Source of the DNA: a virus
Length of the DNA: 35,674 bases
Strand: one strand, 5' to 3'
Virus record (IMG/VR): IMGVR_UViG_3300034152_000127
Location: 1 to 35,674 of that record
The notes under the pieces are model-generated. The model searched no databases. It was given only the letters and a program-made list of their open reading frames with translations, and had not been told where the DNA came from. The translations under genes were made by a program, and so were the position numbers. This document shows, one piece after another, positions 27,118 to 35,674 of this stretch (position 1 is the first letter of the stretch; each line of letters begins with the position of its first letter).

Positions 27118-27833
27118 GGTTTCCCCTTCTTCTTGCGCCGACGTGCGTCGGCTTTCTTCTTCTGCGCCTCGACGAGAGCGGTGCCGACCTTGGCGACACT
27201 GTCCTCGATGGTTTCCGCTTCCCTGCGTAGCGTGCGGACGAACAGGTCCGCCCTGTTGGTGAGTTCGTCGAACGTCTCGACGTCGATGTCGTTGCCGTCC
27301 ATGCCCTCGAGCAGCCTGCCGATCTCCGAGCGCAACGCCTCGAGGTGTCCCTCGACGGTGTCGCCCTGTAGCGATACCTCGACGATCTCGAACTGCGAAC
27401 CCATCTCGCGCAGCTCCTCCACCTCTTTCTCGGTGGCGACGAGCTGCAGCGAGCCGGGCAGCGCGTCGTTCGCTGCGGTGTAGACGTTGCCGTCTGACGA
27501 CGTGTACGTCAGCATCATGTGCTTGTGCATCTTGTCCTTCGGCTTCATGTGGACGGCCCACAGTCTGCCGTGGAACTGCCGCGACGGTGTCGTCGTTGGG
27601 AACTCGGCGGGAGCTATGCGCTCGAACACGCCGCGAAGGTCGCCGGTCATCGACATGATCTTGCTGCGCTTGGCCGTGATCTTCGTTGTGCCTGTAGCGA
27701 CGTCGTCATCGATCTCGACTTGCCTCGGGCGCAGCACCATGCGGACGGGCGCTCCTTCGAGGCCGTCGACCTCGAGCACGATCGCTCTGCCGCCGTAGGT
27801 GTACGACGGCTTGTACTGCTCCTTGCTTCCCAT
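27114..27833 (-). CDS. Unknown partner protein with shared C-terminal module
   Basis: A 239-residue protein between the exonuclease and RecT genes. The first 150 residues are strand-rich (GGRAIVLEVDGLEG, RMVLRPRQVEIDDD, FHGRLWAVHMKPKDKMHKHM). Residues 157-223 are helical and align with the C-termini of the exonuclease and the 34722-35663 product, including T-F-D-E-L-T-N-R-A-D-L-F. The tail is Lys/Arg-rich. ATG 27833 overlaps the exonuclease stop (TGATG); GTG 27836 is possible. No ribosome-binding site is seen, so translation probably depends on the exonuclease gene. It may hold nuclease and recombinase together. Confidence 0.65.
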   Translation of the reverse strand: MGSKEQYKPSYTYGGRAIVLEVDGLEGAPVRMVLRPRQVEIDDDVATGTTKITAKRSKIMSMTGDLRGVFERIAPAEFPTTTPSRQFHGRLWAVHMKPKDKMHKHMMLTYTSSDGNVYTAANDALPGSLQLVATEKEVEELREMGSQFEIVEVSLQGDTVEGHLEALRSEIGRLLEGMDGNDIDVETFDELTNRADLFVRTLRREAETIEDSVAKVGTALVEAQKKKADARRRKKKGKP

Positions 27834-29053
27834 CACGCGGTGAGTGAGGCGACGAGCGCCTTGTGCGCCTTGTCGATGCCGGTGGCGATCCCTTCTTGCT
27901 CGAGGTTGAGCATGCGCAGGTACAGCTCGGCCCGGTCGCGGAGTTCGTCGAAGGCGTCGACCGCGTCTTCGTCTCCGATGCGCCTCGAGATGAACAGCGA
28001 CAGCTCATCCTTGAGCGTGAGCAGCTGACCGTCGAGCGTTTCGTCGCCGTAGCGAGCCTCGTCTTTGGGTCCGTAGTGACGGAACGACTTGAACGAATTT
28101 CCCTGCTTCTCGTAGCGAGTGAGATCGATCTCGGGGTGCTCGGCCTTGAGCTTCTTCTTGTCGAAGCTCTTGCGGCCCGCCTGCTCCGCATTCGAGAACT
28201 TGTGTCCGTTGGCGGTGATCACCTTGTCGAGTCCCGCCTCTTCGAGCGCCGACTTGATCTGCGCCTTGGCCGCGTCGAGCCTGAGCTTCGATGCGGTAAA
28301 CGCTTCGTCGGCGAGCGTGAACTGCTTGACGGCCTCGTCCCACGCATCGCCGTCGACGTGCTGGTACTCTGACTTCGACTTCGGGATCTTGATCGGCTGC
28401 GGCGGTGCGGCCTCGATGGGCGGCTCGTCCCGCTCGACGTGGTTCTTCCAGAAGTGCTCGGCGTTGGCGAGGATCGCCCCGATCATCTCGTCGTTGCGCG
28501 GCACCTCGTAGATCTGTACGTCGCACTTCTCCGGCTCGTAGATTACGAAGCACACGCCAGGGCAGCCGTCGGGCAGCTTGCCGAGGTGCGGAAGCTCGCC
28601 GACGCTTGCGACGTGTACGAGGTGCTGCCCTTGCACTTGGTAGTAGTCCTTCAACCCCTCGGCGCGGATGCGGTCGGCGACGCGCTGCATCGGCGACTTC
28701 ACCTCGACCACCCAGCCATCCTCGCGCAGTCCGTCGAAGTCGGCGTACAGCCACGGGCGGTCGGGGTCGACGACCTGAAACTCATTCCACCGCTCCTCGT
28801 CCGTCTCCGGCGCGTAGATCTTCATGCCGAGCTTCTGCTCGGCGAGCGCGATGGCGAGCGGCTCGTACATATGGCCGCGTCGAAAGTTGACGTTGTCGGG
28901 CTGCGGCTCGGGCTTCGACTTCTTGCTGATGTACGTGTCGAGCGATGTCGACTCGAACACCTTGCCGAGTGCGAGCACGGGCGAATCGCTCGAACCGACG
29001 CCGCGCTGGCGGCTCTCGAGCCATTCCTGTTCGTTGGTGATCCTCTTCGTCAT
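27833..29053 (-). CDS. YqaJ/lambda-type exonuclease with extra C-terminal module
   Basis: A 406-residue PD-(D/E)XK exonuclease. The core is intact: V-G-S-S-D23, E64 in RRGHMYEPLA, D105/D107 in LYADFDG, E117-V-K119 and the YYQVQGQ helix. It degrades one strand at double-strand ends so RecT can anneal. Beyond the usual size, residues 220-330 form helices, and 337-404 form a coiled-coil module shared with two other proteins here. Its GGAGGCAAACCATG initiation region (29064-29051) is identical to that of the 35663 gene and complementary to the 30260-30348 hairpin loop. Confidence 0.9.
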   Translation of the reverse strand: MTKRITNEQEWLESRQRGVGSSDSPVLALGKVFESTSLDTYISKKSKPEPQPDNVNFRRGHMYEPLAIALAEQKLGMKIYAPETDEERWNEFQVVDPDRPWLYADFDGLREDGWVVEVKSPMQRVADRIRAEGLKDYYQVQGQHLVHVASVGELPHLGKLPDGCPGVCFVIYEPEKCDVQIYEVPRNDEMIGAILANAEHFWKNHVERDEPPIEAAPPQPIKIPKSKSEYQHVDGDAWDEAVKQFTLADEAFTASKLRLDAAKAQIKSALEEAGLDKVITANGHKFSNAEQAGRKSFDKKKLKAEHPEIDLTRYEKQGNSFKSFRHYGPKDEARYGDETLDGQLLTLKDELSLFISRRIGDEDAVDAFDELRDRAELYLRMLNLEQEGIATGIDKAHKALVASLTA

Positions 29054-29064
29054 GGTTTGCCTCC
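29051..29064 (-). promoter_or_regulatory. Initiation region matching the hairpin loop (exonuclease)
   Basis: The minus strand reads GGAGGCAAACCATG, ending in the exonuclease start codon. Thirteen nucleotides are exactly complementary to the minus-strand RNA of loop positions 30311-30299. The same 14 nt recur at 35661-35674. Confidence 0.5.
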
Positions 29065-29070
29065 TTGTTG

Positions 29071-30243
29071 CTACCACCAGCTATACAAGCCAGGGTACGG
29101 GTCATCTGCGATCTCGTAGACCGCTTCGTCGCGAAGTGTCCCGGCGCACACGCGCCTGTACGGGCAGACGCTGCCGCGCGCGGCGCAAGCTCTCGGGTTG
29201 CGGGGCCACGTGCCGCGCCGCCGCGCCGTCTCGATCTCTCGGATCGTCTCGTAGGTATCAGCGAGCCACGAGTCGATCTGTTCGTCGGTGACGAAGCGGC
29301 GCACGCGGTAGGCGAATGACTCGCCGCGCTTGGCGAGCCTGTTCAGCAGCGAGCGAGCGGCCTCGCGCTGCTTGTCGTGGTCGAGGTGCTTGTACTGCTC
29401 GAGCTTGCTATTCCAGATCGCCCACGTCGTGTCGCACGCTGCGACGCTCATGCCGCCGACGCCTGTTCCGTTGCACGTCGGGCAGGGCTTCCGCACCTTG
29501 AGTCCAGAGTCGTCTTCGGTCAGGCAGTAGCCGTCTTTGCAGTGGCGACACTTCGTCGTGTTCGGAATCGATGGCGGTTTCGTGCGAACGAAGTCGAACT
29601 CGACGACGCGGACGGGCTTGCGGTTGAGCTTCGATGCGGCCCAGCAAAGGCCAGGGATGTCGAGCCGGTGTCCGAGTTCGGTGCGTACGTCGAGCGGGTC
29701 TGCGTTCGACGTCAGGTGCCTGACGACGAGCATCGGCTCGCCGTCCTCGTTCACGGTCAAGCGGTCGAGTAGGTGCGCCACCGTGTACTTCGACGGTCCA
29801 CCTATCTTCTTGCGCTCGAACGTTGGCAGTCGGTGCTCGACGATGCGCCGCACTACTGGCTTGCCCTTGCGCTTGATGGCGTGCGCGACTGAGGCGTGCG
29901 CGTCCTCGTAGTGCACGAGGATACCGGCGACGTCGTCCTCGATGGCGCGCATGGTTGCTGCGAGATCTTCGTCGTGGGTGCTCGCGGCTCTCGTGTCGCG
30001 TGACCATTTCTCGGCCGCGCGCGCGACGATGCCGTCGACCTCGCCGGGCTCCTTGTTGAGCGCCAGCGCGAGGTCGCGAGCGTAGAGCACCTCGGCGAGC
30101 AACGACTTGACGCGCGGCGGGAACCAACGCGATCGGTTCGCCAGGCGGTAGTCGTTGACGTACTCGATGTTGAATCGGTGTCGGCAAGACGCTGCCACGC
30201 CAAGCATCGACGGCGTGTAGCGCGTAGAGGGTCGCGTCTGCAT
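29071..30243 (-). CDS. RecB/Cas4-like Fe-S protein with degenerate nuclease site
   Basis: A 390-residue protein of the RecB-like PD-(D/E)XK_1 group. The four-Cys Fe-S cage is present: C20 near the N-terminus and C353-x6-C360-x5-C366 near the end. E136 and D160 occupy nuclease-fold positions, but the D-x-K strand reads V-V-R175-H-L177-T, so the catalytic Asp and Lys appear lost. A DnaJ-type zinc insertion (CRHC..., CPTCNGTG; residues 232-259) is unusual. It is the first gene after the 30260-30348 hairpin, in an operon with the exonuclease and RecT. Catalysis is doubtful; DNA-end binding is possible. GGGGTAG is a weak ribosome-binding site. Confidence 0.7.
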   Translation of the reverse strand: MQTRPSTRYTPSMLGVAASCRHRFNIEYVNDYRLANRSRWFPPRVKSLLAEVLYARDLALALNKEPGEVDGIVARAAEKWSRDTRAASTHDEDLAATMRAIEDDVAGILVHYEDAHASVAHAIKRKGKPVVRRIVEHRLPTFERKKIGGPSKYTVAHLLDRLTVNEDGEPMLVVRHLTSNADPLDVRTELGHRLDIPGLCWAASKLNRKPVRVVEFDFVRTKPPSIPNTTKCRHCKDGYCLTEDDSGLKVRKPCPTCNGTGVGGMSVAACDTTWAIWNSKLEQYKHLDHDKQREAARSLLNRLAKRGESFAYRVRRFVTDEQIDSWLADTYETIREIETARRRGTWPRNPRACAARGSVCPYRRVCAGTLRDEAVYEIADDPYPGLYSWW

Positions 30244-30259: not shown

Positions 30260-30348
30260 GAGTCCCGCTCACAGAGGGACGGGCGAGCGTAGCTCAACGG
30301 AGGCAAACCATATCACCCGGCTCGCTCGTCCCTCTGTAGGCGGGACTC
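30260..30348 (-). ncRNA. Long hairpin with anti-ribosome-binding-site loop
   Basis: Positions 30260-30288 pair with 30320-30348 in 29 pairs with one mismatch and two G-U wobbles. The loop is 30289-30319. On the minus strand the loop reads AUGGUUUGCCUCC, complementary to GGAGGCAAACCAU at the starts of two genes. The hairpin overlaps the XRE stop codon (30347-30349) and lies before the 30243 start. No U-tract follows. It could be an RNase III-processed regulatory RNA, an attenuator or an antisense loop. That a transcript exists is inferred. Confidence 0.55.
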
Positions 30349-30655
30349 AGTCGAAGAATCCTTCGCCGTCGGTGCCAGTCCTCTTTTGCCGACGACGATC
30401 CATTTTTGCCTTTTTGGCTTGTGCGTATTCGTGTTCGGACACGGGCGTCAGCAACACCTCCATCGGCACCTCGAGCGCGCGAGAGATTTCGAGCGCGAGT
30501 GTCGCCTTCATGTTGCCTCTGCTGATGACGTCATGCAGCGACTGCGGTGTCTTGCCGATGCGTCGAGCGAGTTCGGCCCGTGAAATGCCGATGCGGTCGC
30601 ACTCGACTTCGATCCTCAGTCGCAGGTCGTTGATTCGGTCATTCTGACTTGTCAC
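30347..30655 (-). CDS. XRE-type (Cro/CI-like) helix-turn-helix regulator
   Basis: A 102-residue protein with a lambda-repressor-like domain: LRLRIEVECDRIGISRAELA, then RIGKTPQSLHDVIS as the recognition region and ALEISRALEVPMEVLL. The C-terminus is basic and disordered (KAKMDRRRQKRTGTDG). It has no oligomerisation or cleavage domain, so it is Cro-like. The start is GTG at 30655, with AGGAAACA just upstream; a longer in-frame start at 30715 would lie at or above the promoter -10. It is probably the regulator of the recombination operon. Confidence 0.8.
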   Translation of the reverse strand: MTSQNDRINDLRLRIEVECDRIGISRAELARRIGKTPQSLHDVISRGNMKATLALEISRALEVPMEVLLTPVSEHEYAQAKKAKMDRRRQKRTGTDGEGFFD

Positions 30656-30710: not shown

Positions 30711-30756
30711 AGCATAGGGGCGGGTGCGCGTACACGTCAAGGTTTTCGGGGATATA
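30711..30756 (-). promoter_or_regulatory. Sigma70-like promoter of the XRE gene, with shared upstream motif
   Basis: The minus strand reads TTGACG (30740-30735), an 18-nt spacer and TATGCT (30716-30711). Immediately upstream is the motif GGTTTTC-N3-GATATA on the plus strand (30741-30756), also found at 9090-9105. An AT-rich tract continues beyond. This is the strongest sigma70-like promoter I see in the window. Confidence 0.6.
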
Positions 30757-30799
30757 AGATTCGGAAACCCACGAGCCGCGCACGTTACCCGAGTCGGGT

Positions 30800-31398: not shown

Positions 31399-31610
31399 CA
31401 CACCACCTCGTCGAGCGCGTCGGTGTCGGCGAGCACCCTCTCCACGGCGTCGACGAGTAAGCCGTTCAACCACTCGTCGTCGTCGGGCGTGAACGCCTGT
31501 CCGTCCCACGAGCCGGTCATCACGCGCCCGTGTCCGTCTTGGTAGACCGCGACGGCGCTACCGAAGATCGACACCTCGATGAGTGCGCCCTCGAACCTGA
31601 AACAGATCAT
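31398..31610 (-). CDS. Short protein, function unknown
   Basis: A 70-residue protein (MICFRFEGALIEVSIFGSAV at its start). AGGAGGAGCC directly precedes the ATG at 31610, and the start overlaps the upstream stop by ATGA. The N-terminus forms two strands; the C-terminus is a helix (EWLNGLLVDAVERVLADTDA). Unassigned. Confidence 0.6.
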   Translation of the reverse strand: MICFRFEGALIEVSIFGSAVAVYQDGHGRVMTGSWDGQAFTPDDDEWLNGLLVDAVERVLADTDALDEVV

Positions 31611-31942
31611 GGCTCCTCCTTCCATGTGCGCGACTTCTCAATTAGCGCCTGCGTGTAGCGAGCGCCGAGTCGAGCGAGCAGCGCTTCTTCGTCCTCGAGT
31701 TCGTCGGGCGTTGGTACGTGGTCTACGATGCGGTACGTGTTGAGTCCGTTGCAGCATCCAGCGCCGAAGGCGAGTACCCGCTCGACCCGACGCTTCTCTT
31801 GCTGGTCGGCTTGTTCGTAGTAGCCACAGCGCCAGCGGTGGCCGTCCCACTCGAGGTGCTTGCACCGACCGCGGCTCTCTGCCGTGCGGTCGATCCCGCA
31901 CGTCGCCTTCCGGCAGCAGAAGCCGCAGCCGATGCACTCCAT
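31607..31942 (-). CDS. Cysteine-cluster protein, YkgJ-like in part
   Basis: A 111-residue protein whose N-terminus has C3-x-x-C6-x-x-C9-C10 and C15, with further Cys at 27 and 39 and a late GAGCCNG. The CxxCxxCC opening resembles the YkgJ class but lacks the C-P-F-L...R-P-x-x-C part, so it is a distant or different cluster protein. The start at 31942 overlaps the VWA gene stop (TGATG). Metal or Fe-S binding is likely. Confidence 0.6.
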   Translation of the reverse strand: MECIGCGFCCRKATCGIDRTAESRGRCKHLEWDGHRWRCGYYEQADQQEKRRVERVLAFGAGCCNGLNTYRIVDHVPTPDELEDEEALLARLGARYTQALIEKSRTWKEEP

Positions 31943-33414
31943 CAGACCCTCTGAAAGAACTTGTGCATCGCCTCGTCGTTGCGAAGCACGTCGTCGAGGT
32001 GCACCGTCTCGTCGCTGAACAGCTTGTTCGTGTCGGCGCTCGTGTAGGTTCCGACGAGAATTGAGTACACGGAGAACGACAGCTCGCGCTGCGCCGCCTT
32101 GAACTGAGCGAGCCACGAGTCGTCGACGCGGGCGTTGCCGTCCGTCACCATGACGATGTCGGCCTCGGAGAACGCTCCGGTGTCGCGGATCTTCTTGACG
32201 GCCTCGGACAGCGGACCCATGAAGTTCGTTCCGCCGTCGGCGGCGAAGAACGACACGGCAGCGAGTACCTCCTCGCGGTCGATGTCGGCCCACTTCGTGA
32301 ACGTGTCCACGCGCAGTACGTTCGCGCCGAAGTGAACGATCGCGAACGCGCGCTTCTGCTTGTAGGCGATCTCGAGGAACGCCAGCGAGACGGCTGCGGC
32401 CCACACGTCGGCGTCACCGGCGCTCATCGACCCGCTGCTGTCGACGACCATGACGATCGGCCCCTGTTCCTTCTTCGGCGTCTTCGACAGCTCGAACTGC
32501 AAGAGGCTGCGCTCGTGGAGCTTGGACGCGAACACGAGGTCGATGTCGTCGTCGGTGTAGAGCGCTTCGGCTGGCACCATCTTGCGAAGCTCGTCGCCGC
32601 ACTCGATGCCGGTCACCTCGTCGGTTCCCTTCTGTGGCTTCTGGCGCTGCTGCTCCATCGCGATGCGCCGCATTCTGCCGGCGAGCTCTGCGATGCGCTT
32701 GAGCCGCTTGTTCTGGTTCACCACCGACGCGAGCTTCTTGTGCACGGCCATCCGCGCCTTTCGCCCGCTGTGCTGCTCCATGCCGAAGCTGAACGCGTCG
32801 ACGAGCCGTTCCTCGGCGTCGACCTGCTCGTTCGCCTTCTTCATGGCCGAGCGGATCGCGTTGCGGACGTCGGTGTCGTCGAGCATCGATGCGGCCTGCT
32901 CGTTGCGCTGCTTGCGCGCGGGCAGTCCGTTCGGGTTGTTCGGGTCGAGCTGCTCGTCGATCGTTTCCTGCAACGCCTCGCGCTCCTCGTCGGTGTCGGC
33001 GTTGTCGCGCAGCCGCTCGAGGTACTCGACGACCTCTTCGTCGCCACGAAGATCCTCGACGGGTTCCTCGGGCGCAGGCACGGAGTCGAGCAGCGTGTCG
33101 ATGACAGCGGCGGTGCCGATGCCGGCCCAACGCTCGTTGCCCTTGCTGCGCTGGCGGAAGTCCTCGACCTCGGGCAGCTCGTCGATGCGCTCGTGCAGCT
33201 TGACGAACACGTCAGCGCCGGTCGCTGGCTCCTCGAGCTTCTCGGGCTGCTCCGCATAGAGGCGGTGAAACACCTCCGCCGAGAAGTCCGAAAACGCTTC
33301 GTAACGATCGCGCCCGACGCGGTCGGACTCCTCTGCGGCCTGGTCGACCATCTTGTGGTACTTCCACAGATGACGCTGAAAGCCGCTTGGCTTGTAAACG
33401 AGAGGGTCAGACAT
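31942..33414 (-). CDS. VWA-domain protein, ViaA-like
   Basis: A 490-residue protein. Residues 1-300 are helical and charged. Residues 319-480 form a von Willebrand A domain with an intact metal (MIDAS) site: D325-S-S327-G-S329-M, T396 in GGTNF and D425 in VTDGNA. This is the layout of ViaA/CobT-like partners of MoxR-class AAA+ proteins: helical N-terminus plus C-terminal VWA. The gene lies 10 nt downstream of its AAA+ partner. Together they likely remodel a substrate complex or load metal; the target is unknown. Confidence 0.85.
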   Translation of the reverse strand: MSDPLVYKPSGFQRHLWKYHKMVDQAAEESDRVGRDRYEAFSDFSAEVFHRLYAEQPEKLEEPATGADVFVKLHERIDELPEVEDFRQRSKGNERWAGIGTAAVIDTLLDSVPAPEEPVEDLRGDEEVVEYLERLRDNADTDEEREALQETIDEQLDPNNPNGLPARKQRNEQAASMLDDTDVRNAIRSAMKKANEQVDAEERLVDAFSFGMEQHSGRKARMAVHKKLASVVNQNKRLKRIAELAGRMRRIAMEQQRQKPQKGTDEVTGIECGDELRKMVPAEALYTDDDIDLVFASKLHERSLLQFELSKTPKKEQGPIVMVVDSSGSMSAGDADVWAAAVSLAFLEIAYKQKRAFAIVHFGANVLRVDTFTKWADIDREEVLAAVSFFAADGGTNFMGPLSEAVKKIRDTGAFSEADIVMVTDGNARVDDSWLAQFKAAQRELSFSVYSILVGTYTSADTNKLFSDETVHLDDVLRNDEAMHKFFQRV

Positions 33415-33423
33415 CGCGCACCT

Positions 33424-34620
33424 CTACTTCTTCTGGCGGAAAAACGTCACCGTGCTCATCATCTCGTCGACGTTGGCGATGGCGGCGTTCACCGTCTCGT
33501 TGGCCTCGGCGATGGCGGGGTTCTCGTCACCAGCCTCGTCGATGACGTCCAGCAGCGCGTCGCGGCGGCTGGCGACGTTGCTCGACACGTCGCTGATCTT
33601 CTTGATCATCTCGACCTTCGTCATCTGCCCGCTCTTGAGCAGCGAGATGTCGGGCAGCTCGCGCATCGCGGTCTTCACCGCGTCGATGATTGCCTCGGCG
33701 CGCGCGCCGTACGGGTCGGCGGCGTTGCCGATGATCGTCGACAGGCGCTCGCGCTCCTTGTGCTCCTTCCAGAGCACGTCGGCCAGTACCATGAAGTCGT
33801 TGCTCACGACGTTGCTGCGACCGGCGAGCACCGCGCGGGCCTTGATGGTCCGAACGGCCTTCACCCACGTCCTGTCGGATGCGACGAAACCCTCGTCCTC
33901 GACTGCGGCCTTGATGTTCAGCAGCGTGTCGATGTCGCCGTTCTTGAACGGCATCGAGTCGACGGCGTCGCGCAGCACGTCGAGGTCGCCCGGCTCGAGC
34001 TTCGCCGTCACCGGCGTCGTGCCACCAGCGCCGAGCAGCTTCGCGAGCGAGTCGCGGTCGCTGATGTAGTCGACCCAAAACTTGAAGCTGAACCGATCGA
34101 ACAGCGCCTGCAGCGAGTCGTCCTGCGGGTACTCGTTCGACGCCGACAGCATGATCTCCAGCGGGCAGTCGATGAGCTGTCCGCCGTTGTGGAACTTGCG
34201 CTCGTTCATCAGTGTCAGCTTCGTGTTGAGGATCGCGCTCGACGCCTTGAAGATCTCGTCGTCGAAGATGACGCGAGAGGTCGCGGCGTAGCCGTCGAGC
34301 ATCCGCTCGAAGCGGTCGTTCTTCAAGGCGCTGAACGACACGGGGCCGAAGACCTCTTCGACGGTCGTGAACTTGGTCAGCAGGATCTCGAAGTACGAAC
34401 CGTCGGCGACGGCGTTGGCGAACGTGCGCGCGAACAACGACTTCGCGGTGCCGGGCGGTCCGAGCATCAGGCAATGCTCGCTCGACAGCAGCGCCGTCAT
34501 CGCGCCACGCACCAGCGAGGTGCGCTCGGGGAATGCGGCGTCGAGTTGCGCGGTCACCTCCTTGGCGCGCGCGGTGGCGTCGTCGAGGTCGGGGAGCTGC
34601 TTCTTCGTCTTTGCGTTCAT
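33424..34620 (-). CDS. MoxR/RavA-type AAA+ ATPase
   Basis: A 398-residue AAA+ protein. Walker A is G54-P-P-G-T-A-K60-S; Walker B VIFDD121-E122 is followed by I-F-K-A-S-S-A-I-L-N-T, the RavA/MoxR signature; sensor 1 is N162 in LSASNEY. MNER and FDRFSFKFWVDYI are also typical. The C-terminus is helical. Its initiation region, GGAGGCAAACCGATG, shares 11 nt with the exonuclease and 35663 genes. It partners the VWA protein encoded next. Chaperone or activation function is inferred from the pair. Confidence 0.9.
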   Translation of the reverse strand: MNAKTKKQLPDLDDATARAKEVTAQLDAAFPERTSLVRGAMTALLSSEHCLMLGPPGTAKSLFARTFANAVADGSYFEILLTKFTTVEEVFGPVSFSALKNDRFERMLDGYAATSRVIFDDEIFKASSAILNTKLTLMNERKFHNGGQLIDCPLEIMLSASNEYPQDDSLQALFDRFSFKFWVDYISDRDSLAKLLGAGGTTPVTAKLEPGDLDVLRDAVDSMPFKNGDIDTLLNIKAAVEDEGFVASDRTWVKAVRTIKARAVLAGRSNVVSNDFMVLADVLWKEHKERERLSTIIGNAADPYGARAEAIIDAVKTAMRELPDISLLKSGQMTKVEMIKKISDVSSNVASRRDALLDVIDEAGDENPAIAEANETVNAAIANVDEMMSTVTFFRQKK

Positions 34621-34632
34621 CGGTTTGCCTCC
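34618..34632 (-). promoter_or_regulatory. Initiation region partly matching the hairpin loop (AAA+)
   Basis: The minus strand reads GGAGGCAAACC (34632-34622) followed by GATG. Eleven nucleotides match those of the exonuclease and 35663 initiation regions and are complementary to the 30260-30348 loop; the extra G breaks the match at the start codon. Confidence 0.45.
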
Positions 34633-34645
34633 TTCGGTCCTCTTA

Positions 34646-34715
34646 CCTCGAGGAACCTCGAAGCCCGCTCATCCACTTGACAAGCGGGCCTCGGCGCTCC
34701 TCCAAGCGCCGGGCC
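34646..34715 (-). other. Cluster of three hairpins in the AAA+ leader
   Basis: Between the module gene and the AAA+ gene are CGAGG/CCTCG (34649-34660), GCCCGCT/AGCGGGC (34663-34669 with 34683-34689) and GGCC-CGGCGC/GCGCCG-GGCC (34687-34715, one bulge). The last has an 8-nt loop which on the minus strand reads TTGGAGGA, a ribosome-binding-site-like sequence. No U-tract follows. The second and third share three bases, so they may compete. Confidence 0.45.
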
Positions 34716-34721
34716 TTTGCC

Positions 34722-35663
34722 CTAGTTGTTCTTCGCTTCCTCGACGACGGCCAGCGACGCGACGAGTCCTTTGTGCGCATCGTTGAGTCGCTTCATCAGC
34801 TCGTCCTGCTTGTTGCCGAGCACGCGGGCGTGCAGCTCGATCTGGTCGCGGAGGTCGTCGAACATCTCGACCCGCTTCTCCAGCGTCGACACGCGCGTGT
34901 TGCCCTTCGAGCAGAACGACTGCAACTGCTCCATGAGTCCGTCGAGTCGCGCCTCGAGCGTTTCCTCGGACGCCGTGATCAAGCTGTTGATCGTCTCCTC
35001 GGTGTCGAACACGGGAATGATCACCGTCGAGTTGCCGAGCGCGGACATAAACTCCTTCCACGCGCGGACGCGGTCGGCGTTCGGCGACGGCACCCACCAC
35101 AAGCCGCCGTGCTCGAGCAGCCGGATCGCTCCCCACCGCTCGAACGCGCGCTGGAACGCGACGCGGATGTCGCCGGGCAGGTAGCGCACGCAGAGGTCTT
35201 CGTACTGCGCCTTGACCTTCTGCGCGATCGGGTGCGTCTCGTCGGACAGCTTGAGCATCTCGTCGGCGTCCTTGCCGTCCTTGTACGCCTCCTTGTCGAA
35301 GCCGACCTTGCACTCCGTCTCGAACGAAGCGTCCTTCGGCGACAGCGACCCACCGGCCGCGTCGACGATGTCGCGCCGGACGATGGCGTGCACGATCTTC
35401 AACTCCGTCTCCTCGATCTTGACCGCCGCGAAGCGGCGCTCGTCGCGGCGTCCGCCCTTCACGGCGTCGTTGACCGCGCGGCGGTACGCGCTGGCGGGCG
35501 AGAGCTTCGGCAATCCGAGATCCTCGTCGAGTCCGTGCTGCTCGGCGAGGTCGGTTACGGTCGACTGCTTGTGCGCGCCGTTGAGCGACCAGCCACACAG
35601 GTCGCCCAAGTGCTTGCCCTCTTGCATTGCGAGCAGCTTGTTCATCACCTCTGACTTCGTCAT
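34722..35663 (-). CDS. Unknown protein with shared C-terminal coiled-coil module, AAA/VWA partner
   Basis: A 313-residue protein. The first 220 residues (MTKSEVMNKLLAMQEG, then SPASAYRRAVNDAVKGGRRD, an IVHAIVRRDIVDAAGG segment and a WWVPSPNADRVRAW part) recall an uncharacterised phage family often seen with MoxR/VWA genes (possibly DUF6744; I am unsure). Residues 234-304 form the helical module shared with the exonuclease and 27114-27833 products: M-F-D-D-L-R-D-Q-I-E-L-H-A-R, ending D-A-H-K-G-L-V-A-S-L. The start at 35663 has GGAGGCAAACCATG, identical to the exonuclease. Confidence 0.6.
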   Translation of the reverse strand: MTKSEVMNKLLAMQEGKHLGDLCGWSLNGAHKQSTVTDLAEQHGLDEDLGLPKLSPASAYRRAVNDAVKGGRRDERRFAAVKIEETELKIVHAIVRRDIVDAAGGSLSPKDASFETECKVGFDKEAYKDGKDADEMLKLSDETHPIAQKVKAQYEDLCVRYLPGDIRVAFQRAFERWGAIRLLEHGGLWWVPSPNADRVRAWKEFMSALGNSTVIIPVFDTEETINSLITASEETLEARLDGLMEQLQSFCSKGNTRVSTLEKRVEMFDDLRDQIELHARVLGNKQDELMKRLNDAHKGLVASLAVVEEAKNN

Positions 35664-35674
35664 GGTTTGCCTCC
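35661..35674 (-). promoter_or_regulatory. Initiation region matching the hairpin loop (module protein)
   Basis: GGAGGCAAACCATG at the right edge of the window is the same 14 nt as at 29051-29064, and 13 of them are complementary to the minus-strand loop of the 30260-30348 hairpin. The upstream context is cut off by the window end. Confidence 0.45.

What the first reader, a model, noticed from the sequence alone, without database searches (positions are those of the whole stretch)
30260..30348. Hairpin loop complementary to the ribosome-binding site and start codon of two phage genes
Seen: a 29-pair stem (one mismatch, two wobbles) with a 31-nt loop between the XRE regulator and the RecB-like gene. 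In the transcribed (minus) strand the loop contains AUGGUUUGCCUCC. This is exactly complementary to GGAGGCAAACCAU, the ribosome-binding site plus start codon of the exonuclease gene (29053) and the 35663 gene, and complementary over 11 nt to that of the AAA+ gene (34620). Those genes are in the same orientation, so their mRNAs would pair with this loop. Inference: a phage antisense regulator, made with the recombination operon, that represses translation of a set of genes by kissing-loop pairing, perhaps after RNase III processing. An inverted copy of the initiation site serving another purpose is the alternative.
Basis: partly seen in the sequence, partly recalled or inferred. Interest (0 to 1): 0.85.

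Follow-up and report, generated by a model that had tools for sequence, protein, structure and literature searches.

The report
Hairpin loop antisense to phage start-cassettes
This phage reuses one ribosome-binding 'start cassette' in front of several genes and carries a single reversed copy of it in the loop of its only long hairpin, in a predicted operon between a regulator and the recombination genes; it is probably an RNA switch that can shut those genes off together, but no RNA from it has been observed.

Summary
Arms 30260-30288/30320-30348 form the only long, near-perfect hairpin in the window. Its loop carries the exact reverse complement of GGAGGCAAACCAT, the RBS plus start of the exonuclease (29053) and DUF6744 (35663) genes; 11 nt are shared with the MoxR gene (34620). 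Chance is excluded (about 1 in 200,000 shuffled loops keep even 12 nt). One correction: 'one mismatch, two wobbles' describes the + strand; the transcribed - strand has two mismatches and one wobble. The target is a phage-wide start cassette, AGGAGGCAAACC: a related contig has it before four genes and never inverted. A sigma70-like promoter upstream of the XRE gene and the lack of a - strand terminator put the hairpin in the XRE-RecB-exonuclease transcript. Predicted pairing is favourable (net -11 to -14 kcal/mol), and the three best sites in the window are the three cassette starts. No relative covers the hairpin, so conservation could not be tested. Found here, an independent parallel: K1 mycobacteriophages have a repeated 'start-associated sequence' and one inverted copy, which I find in a hairpin loop in the interval where late transcription starts. 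Best reading: an in-operon antisense hairpin repressing cassette genes, c4/RNAIII-like in action but not a family member. Confidence about 0.45.

The parts
30260..30348 (-). hairpin; 29-nt arms 30320-30348 (5' arm on - strand) and 30260-30288 (3' arm), 31-nt loop
30299..30311 (-). anti-cassette AUGGUUUGCCUCC in the loop, exact reverse complement of the start cassette
   Evidence: duplex energies
30301..30307 (-). predicted 7-nt apical loop UUUGCCU, unpaired in the fold
   Evidence: unpaired probabilities
29052..29064 (-). start cassette GGAGGCAAACCAT of the RecE/YqaJ-like exonuclease gene (target 1)
35662..35674 (-). start cassette GGAGGCAAACCAT of the DUF6744 gene (target 2)
34620..34632 (-). 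start cassette GGAGGCAAACC + GATG of the MoxR AAA+ gene (target 3)
30711..30740 (-). sigma70-like promoter TTGACG-18-TATGCT upstream of the XRE gene
   Evidence: 2 found in the region, 0.5 expected
30347..30655 (-). XRE/HTH_3 regulator, likely GTG start at 30655; its stop codon overlaps the base of the hairpin
27833..29053 (-). RecE/YqaJ-like exonuclease, target gene in the same predicted operon
33424..34620 (-). MoxR AAA+ ATPase, target gene
34722..35663 (-). DUF6744 protein, target gene

Best explanation
The hairpin is an RNA element of the leftward (- strand) operon XRE-hairpin-RecB-like-exonuclease. Its long stem presents a loop that is the exact antisense of the phage's own start cassette GGAGGCAAACC(AU). 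When this RNA is made, the loop pairs with the ribosome-binding site and start codon of cassette-bearing mRNAs, in cis with the exonuclease start 1.2 kb downstream and in trans with DUF6744, MoxR and probably further upstream genes, and blocks 30S binding. Shown: the hairpin, the exact complementarity, the repeated cassette, favourable pairing energies. Inferred: co-transcription, trans action, repression, any processing (for example by RNase III).
For: Only long hairpin in 35.7 kb. Exact 13-nt complement far beyond chance. The three best duplex sites on the window's transcribed strand are the three cassette starts, and four of the five best in G002. Net pairing energy -11 to -14 kcal/mol after opening loop and target. 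The 7-nt apical loop pairs with the cassette core. Promoter upstream of XRE and no - strand terminator in the region. The cassette recurs upstream of four genes in G002, none inverted, and is conserved beyond its Shine-Dalgarno part (CAAACC), so something other than 16S rRNA may read it. Independent parallel: in K1 mycobacteriophages the single inverted start-associated sequence lies in a 10-nt loop, CCUCCUAUCC, of a conserved hairpin, in the gene 92-93 interval of Adephagia where late transcription appears to start (PMC11373665).
Against: No homologue of the hairpin, so neither conservation nor covariation was testable. No expression data for this phage. The A preceding GGAGG, present in every gene copy seen, is not matched in the loop (G opposite A). 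Part of the antisense is tied up in the inner stem. In mycobacteriophage subclusters other than K1 the loop is only partly complementary although the target is unchanged; pair changes there are few and do not exceed shuffles.
Confidence: 0.45

Rival explanations
1. The hairpin is an ordinary operon-processing or mRNA-stability element (RNase III site or barrier after the XRE stop codon). Its loop happens to carry an inverted copy of an RBS left by duplication or template switching, with no antisense role.
For: The stem starts at the XRE stop codon and ends 16 nt before the next start. Other gene gaps of this phage also hold stem-loops (visible at 34640-34720). The + strand copy looks like a real RBS of this phage: a gene near 2930 has CAACGGAGGCAA, and GTAGC lies in the same register upstream of the exonuclease cassette and of the loop copy.
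Against: The copy ends at the cassette boundary and sits in the loop of the only long hairpin; the arms are unrelated to the exonuclease leader; a neutral copy should have decayed.
Confidence: 0.3
2. The + strand is the functional one: an RBS-like loop GGAGGCAAACCAUA displayed on a hairpin as decoy or binding site for a phage protein that recognises the cassette, or a remnant start of a lost rightward gene.
For: The stem pairs slightly better as + strand RNA (two G.U, one mismatch). The loop reads as a typical RBS on that strand.
Against: All genes are on the - strand, no + strand promoter lies nearby, AUA replaces the start codon, and a stop follows 8 codons later.
Confidence: 0.1
3. A DNA-level element: cruciform, replication origin or protein-binding site, in which the inverted cassette serves as a DNA motif.
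For: Long inverted repeat next to a regulator and recombination and replication genes.
Against: No iterons or AT-rich stretch seen beside it; the 13-nt match follows translation-start boundaries, not a DNA motif found elsewhere.
Confidence: 0.1

Closest known systems
c4 antisense RNA of phages P1/P7 (PMC12197685)
   Same: phage RNA with loop-displayed antisense against the RBS region of phage mRNA, blocking translation
   Different: c4 has one target (ant mRNA); here one loop matches a cassette shared by several genes. No match to any Rfam model.
Staphylococcus aureus RNAIII C-rich hairpin loops (PMC2837412)
   Same: hairpin loops complementary to Shine-Dalgarno regions of several mRNAs; loop-loop contact, RNase III cleavage
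   Different: RNAIII is a 0.5-kb host RNA and pairs by short C-rich motifs plus extended duplex; here a 13-nt exact match to a phage cassette, inside a predicted mRNA.
Start-Associated Sequences (SAS) of Cluster K mycobacteriophages (PMC3203893)
   Same: conserved RBS-like repeat before many nonstructural genes, one orientation, and (K1) a single inverted copy not at a gene start, here shown to sit in a hairpin loop
   Different: different sequence (GGGATAGGAGCCC), no detected relation between the phages, and the inverted copy lies in the late-transcription start interval rather than after a regulator.

Membership tests
P1/P7 c4 antisense RNA | sequence/structure match to a curated family | tested here: not met
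   no match of the window to any Rfam 15 family at gathering score; that a C4 model is among them is recalled, not checked
P1/P7 c4 antisense RNA | loop complementary to target RBS | tested here: met
P1/P7 c4 antisense RNA | lies in the same transcript as a target | tested here: inconclusive
   promoter and lack of terminator only predicted
P1/P7 c4 antisense RNA | processed RNA represses translation | not testable with these tools
   needs RNA and reporters
RNAIII | homologous RNA | tested here: not met
   no Rfam match in the window
Cluster K SAS/ESAS system | 13-bp SAS GGGATAGGAGCCC before gene starts | tested here: not met
   cassette is AGGAGGCAAACC
Cluster K SAS/ESAS system | repeated start cassette plus one inverted copy in a hairpin loop (K1 only) | tested here: met
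Intrinsic transcription terminator | stem followed by a U run | tested here: not met
   one search lists no - strand terminator; the stem is followed by CCGCACGGGG

The most novel reading that the evidence does not exclude
Some phages tag a set of their genes with an identical start cassette and encode one RNA hairpin whose loop is the antisense of that tag, so that a single RNA switches off a whole phage regulon at translation. It arose independently in this uncultured phage and in K1 mycobacteriophages, where the anti-tag loop sits where late transcription begins, and could explain why start-associated sequences are conserved beyond the Shine-Dalgarno.
Probability: 0.3. Interest if true: 0.85.

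Novelty: new variant of a known kind. Interest (0 to 1): 0.62.

Why it matters
[quoted passage not shown] their authors asked whether a phage RNA or protein binds them (PMC3203893). An anti-cassette loop would be a direct answer for at least part of the cases, testable in M. smegmatis with Adephagia. It would give phages a one-RNA, many-genes translational switch and provide short orthogonal RBS/antisense-loop pairs.

Tried and rejected
Relatives of the hairpin: blastn of the region against phages and plasmids, arm pattern in viral contigs (15), protein-anchored scans with the RecB-like, exonuclease, DUF6744, vWA, RecT and XRE proteins (11, 12, 16, 27, 28, 36), and genome contigs (29, 37): only two related contigs, G001 (begins at window 26637) and G002 (ends at 31557), neither covering the hairpin. 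tRNA remnant (TAGCTCAACGG resembles a D-arm): ARAGORN finds no tRNA. Intrinsic terminator: no U run. Rfam: nothing. Foldback assembly artefact: arms differ at three positions and the loop content would be unexplained. Most of the 81 contigs sharing WAGGAGGCAAACCATGA are unrelated to the window by blastn and tblastn and carry a single copy, so they were not used as relatives. Cofolding cannot show the kissing complex because it excludes pseudoknots.

Full report
The window is an IMG/VR virus record of 35,674 bases, about 64% G+C, with genes packed on the - strand: RecE/YqaJ-like exonuclease, RecT, DnaB, a MoxR-vWA pair, DUF6744 and an XRE regulator.

The hairpin. Arms 30260-30288 and 30320-30348 (29 nt, 90% complementary, 31-nt spacer) form the best inverted repeat of the window; the next longest candidates are 77-78% complementary. 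The - strand segment folds at -70.3 kcal/mol against a shuffled mean of -48.3 (z -5.6). The stem begins in the XRE stop codon and ends 16 nt before the next start codon.

The loop. On the - strand it reads AUGGUUUGCCUCC, the exact reverse complement of GGAGGCAAACCAU, found at the starts of the exonuclease gene (29052-29064) and the DUF6744 gene (35662-35674), with 11 nt shared at the MoxR gene (34620-34632). Of 200,000 shuffled loops 14 kept an 11-mer of the cassette on either strand and one a 12-mer. The loop folds into a small inner hairpin with an unpaired 7-nt apex UUUGCCU; opening all 13 nt costs 5.8 kcal/mol. After paying for loop and target opening, predicted net pairing is -14.2 (exonuclease), -12.1 (MoxR) and -12.6 (DUF6744) kcal/mol. 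Scanning the window's transcribed strand, the three best duplex sites are these three starts; in the related contig G002 four of the five best are cassette starts.

The cassette is a property of the phage. G002 (15.9 kb, 93% identical over 4.1 kb) has AGGAGGCAAACC directly before four genes and no inverted copy. G001 (31.6 kb, 87% identical over 26.7 kb) covers the left part of the window and lacks it. Conservation beyond GGAGG, into CAAACC, is not needed for pairing with 16S rRNA (established knowledge). RecT has a near version, GGGGAAACC-ATG.

Transcription. The region's best promoter-like site on the - strand is TTGACG-18-TATGCT at 30740-30711, upstream of XRE; no - strand terminator-like site was found between 27500 and 35674. 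Co-transcription of XRE, hairpin, RecB-like gene and exonuclease is therefore likely but only predicted.

Missing evidence. No relative covers the hairpin: scans anchored on six proteins, an arm pattern, the phage and plasmid collections and genome contigs gave nothing.

An independent parallel. Cluster K mycobacteriophages carry a 13-bp Start-Associated Sequence, GGGATAGGAGCCC, before many nonstructural genes; four K1 phages have one copy in the opposite orientation not obviously at a gene start, and the authors left open whether a phage RNA or protein binds the sites (PMC3203893). I located that copy in Anaya (59870-59882) and Adephagia (at 58685). On the gene strand it forms the 10-nt loop CCUCCUAUCC of a 6-bp stem on a longer stem. 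The loop sequence is identical in Anaya, Adephagia, QuincyRose, Illumine, LastHope, Peanam and Validus and nearly so in Biglebops, with the stem kept. In Adephagia it lies between genes 92 and 93 (58447-58878), where RNA-seq shows late transcription appearing to start (PMC11373665), so the late transcript may carry it, depending on the exact start; its would-be targets are mostly early-region genes. Limits: in Amgine, DarthP and Krueger-type phages the stem persists with loops CUUCCCUUCCC, CCUCCUUCCCC and CUCCCUUCCC that match only partly, while SAS is unchanged; other members lack the loop. Pair counting on nine sequences gives 98% paired cells, but only one pair changed on both sides, not above shuffles. 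It is a parallel in layout, not proof of function and not homology.

Mechanism. The most economical reading is an in-operon antisense hairpin: the stem displays the anti-cassette and the loop sequesters RBS and start codon of cassette genes, in cis for the exonuclease and in trans for the others. It works like P1 c4 RNA (PMC12197685) and the C-rich loops of RNAIII (PMC2837412) but belongs to neither: no Rfam match. The main rival is a processing or stability hairpin with an accidental inverted RBS copy; the shared GTAGC in register with the exonuclease leader is a slight hint of duplication.

Noticed in passing
L096 39680-40068 (Anaya 59679-60067); L120 1048-1479 (Adephagia 58447-58878): Conserved noncoding stretch of Cluster K mycobacteriophages (matches in 243 phage records, nearly all Mycobacterium phages) with a hairpin whose loop in K1-type phages is the antisense of the start-associated sequence core; late transcription of Adephagia appears to start in this interval.
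   Followed up: partly
window 30763-30772; L095 9838, 9897, 10039: Motif CGTGGGTTTCCG upstream of the XRE promoter and, with variants, three times upstream of an HNH gene in the related contig: candidate operator of the XRE regulator.
   Followed up: no
window 31942-34620: Phage-borne MoxR AAA+ ATPase and vWA-domain protein pair, 90-96% identical in the related contig.
   Followed up: no
window 34621-34721; L004 7344-7427 and 8942-9030: Gene gaps before cassette genes hold short stem-loops, visible by eye in the sequence.
   Followed up: no
window 29071-30243: 390-aa protein with cysteine clusters and no Pfam, PHROG or phage tblastn match: an orphan of the recombination operon.
   Followed up: partly
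L052 (contig IMGVR_UViG_3300033146_006838): A contig with no detected similarity to the window carries three copies of GGAGGCAAACC on one strand, another possible user of this start cassette.
   Followed up: no
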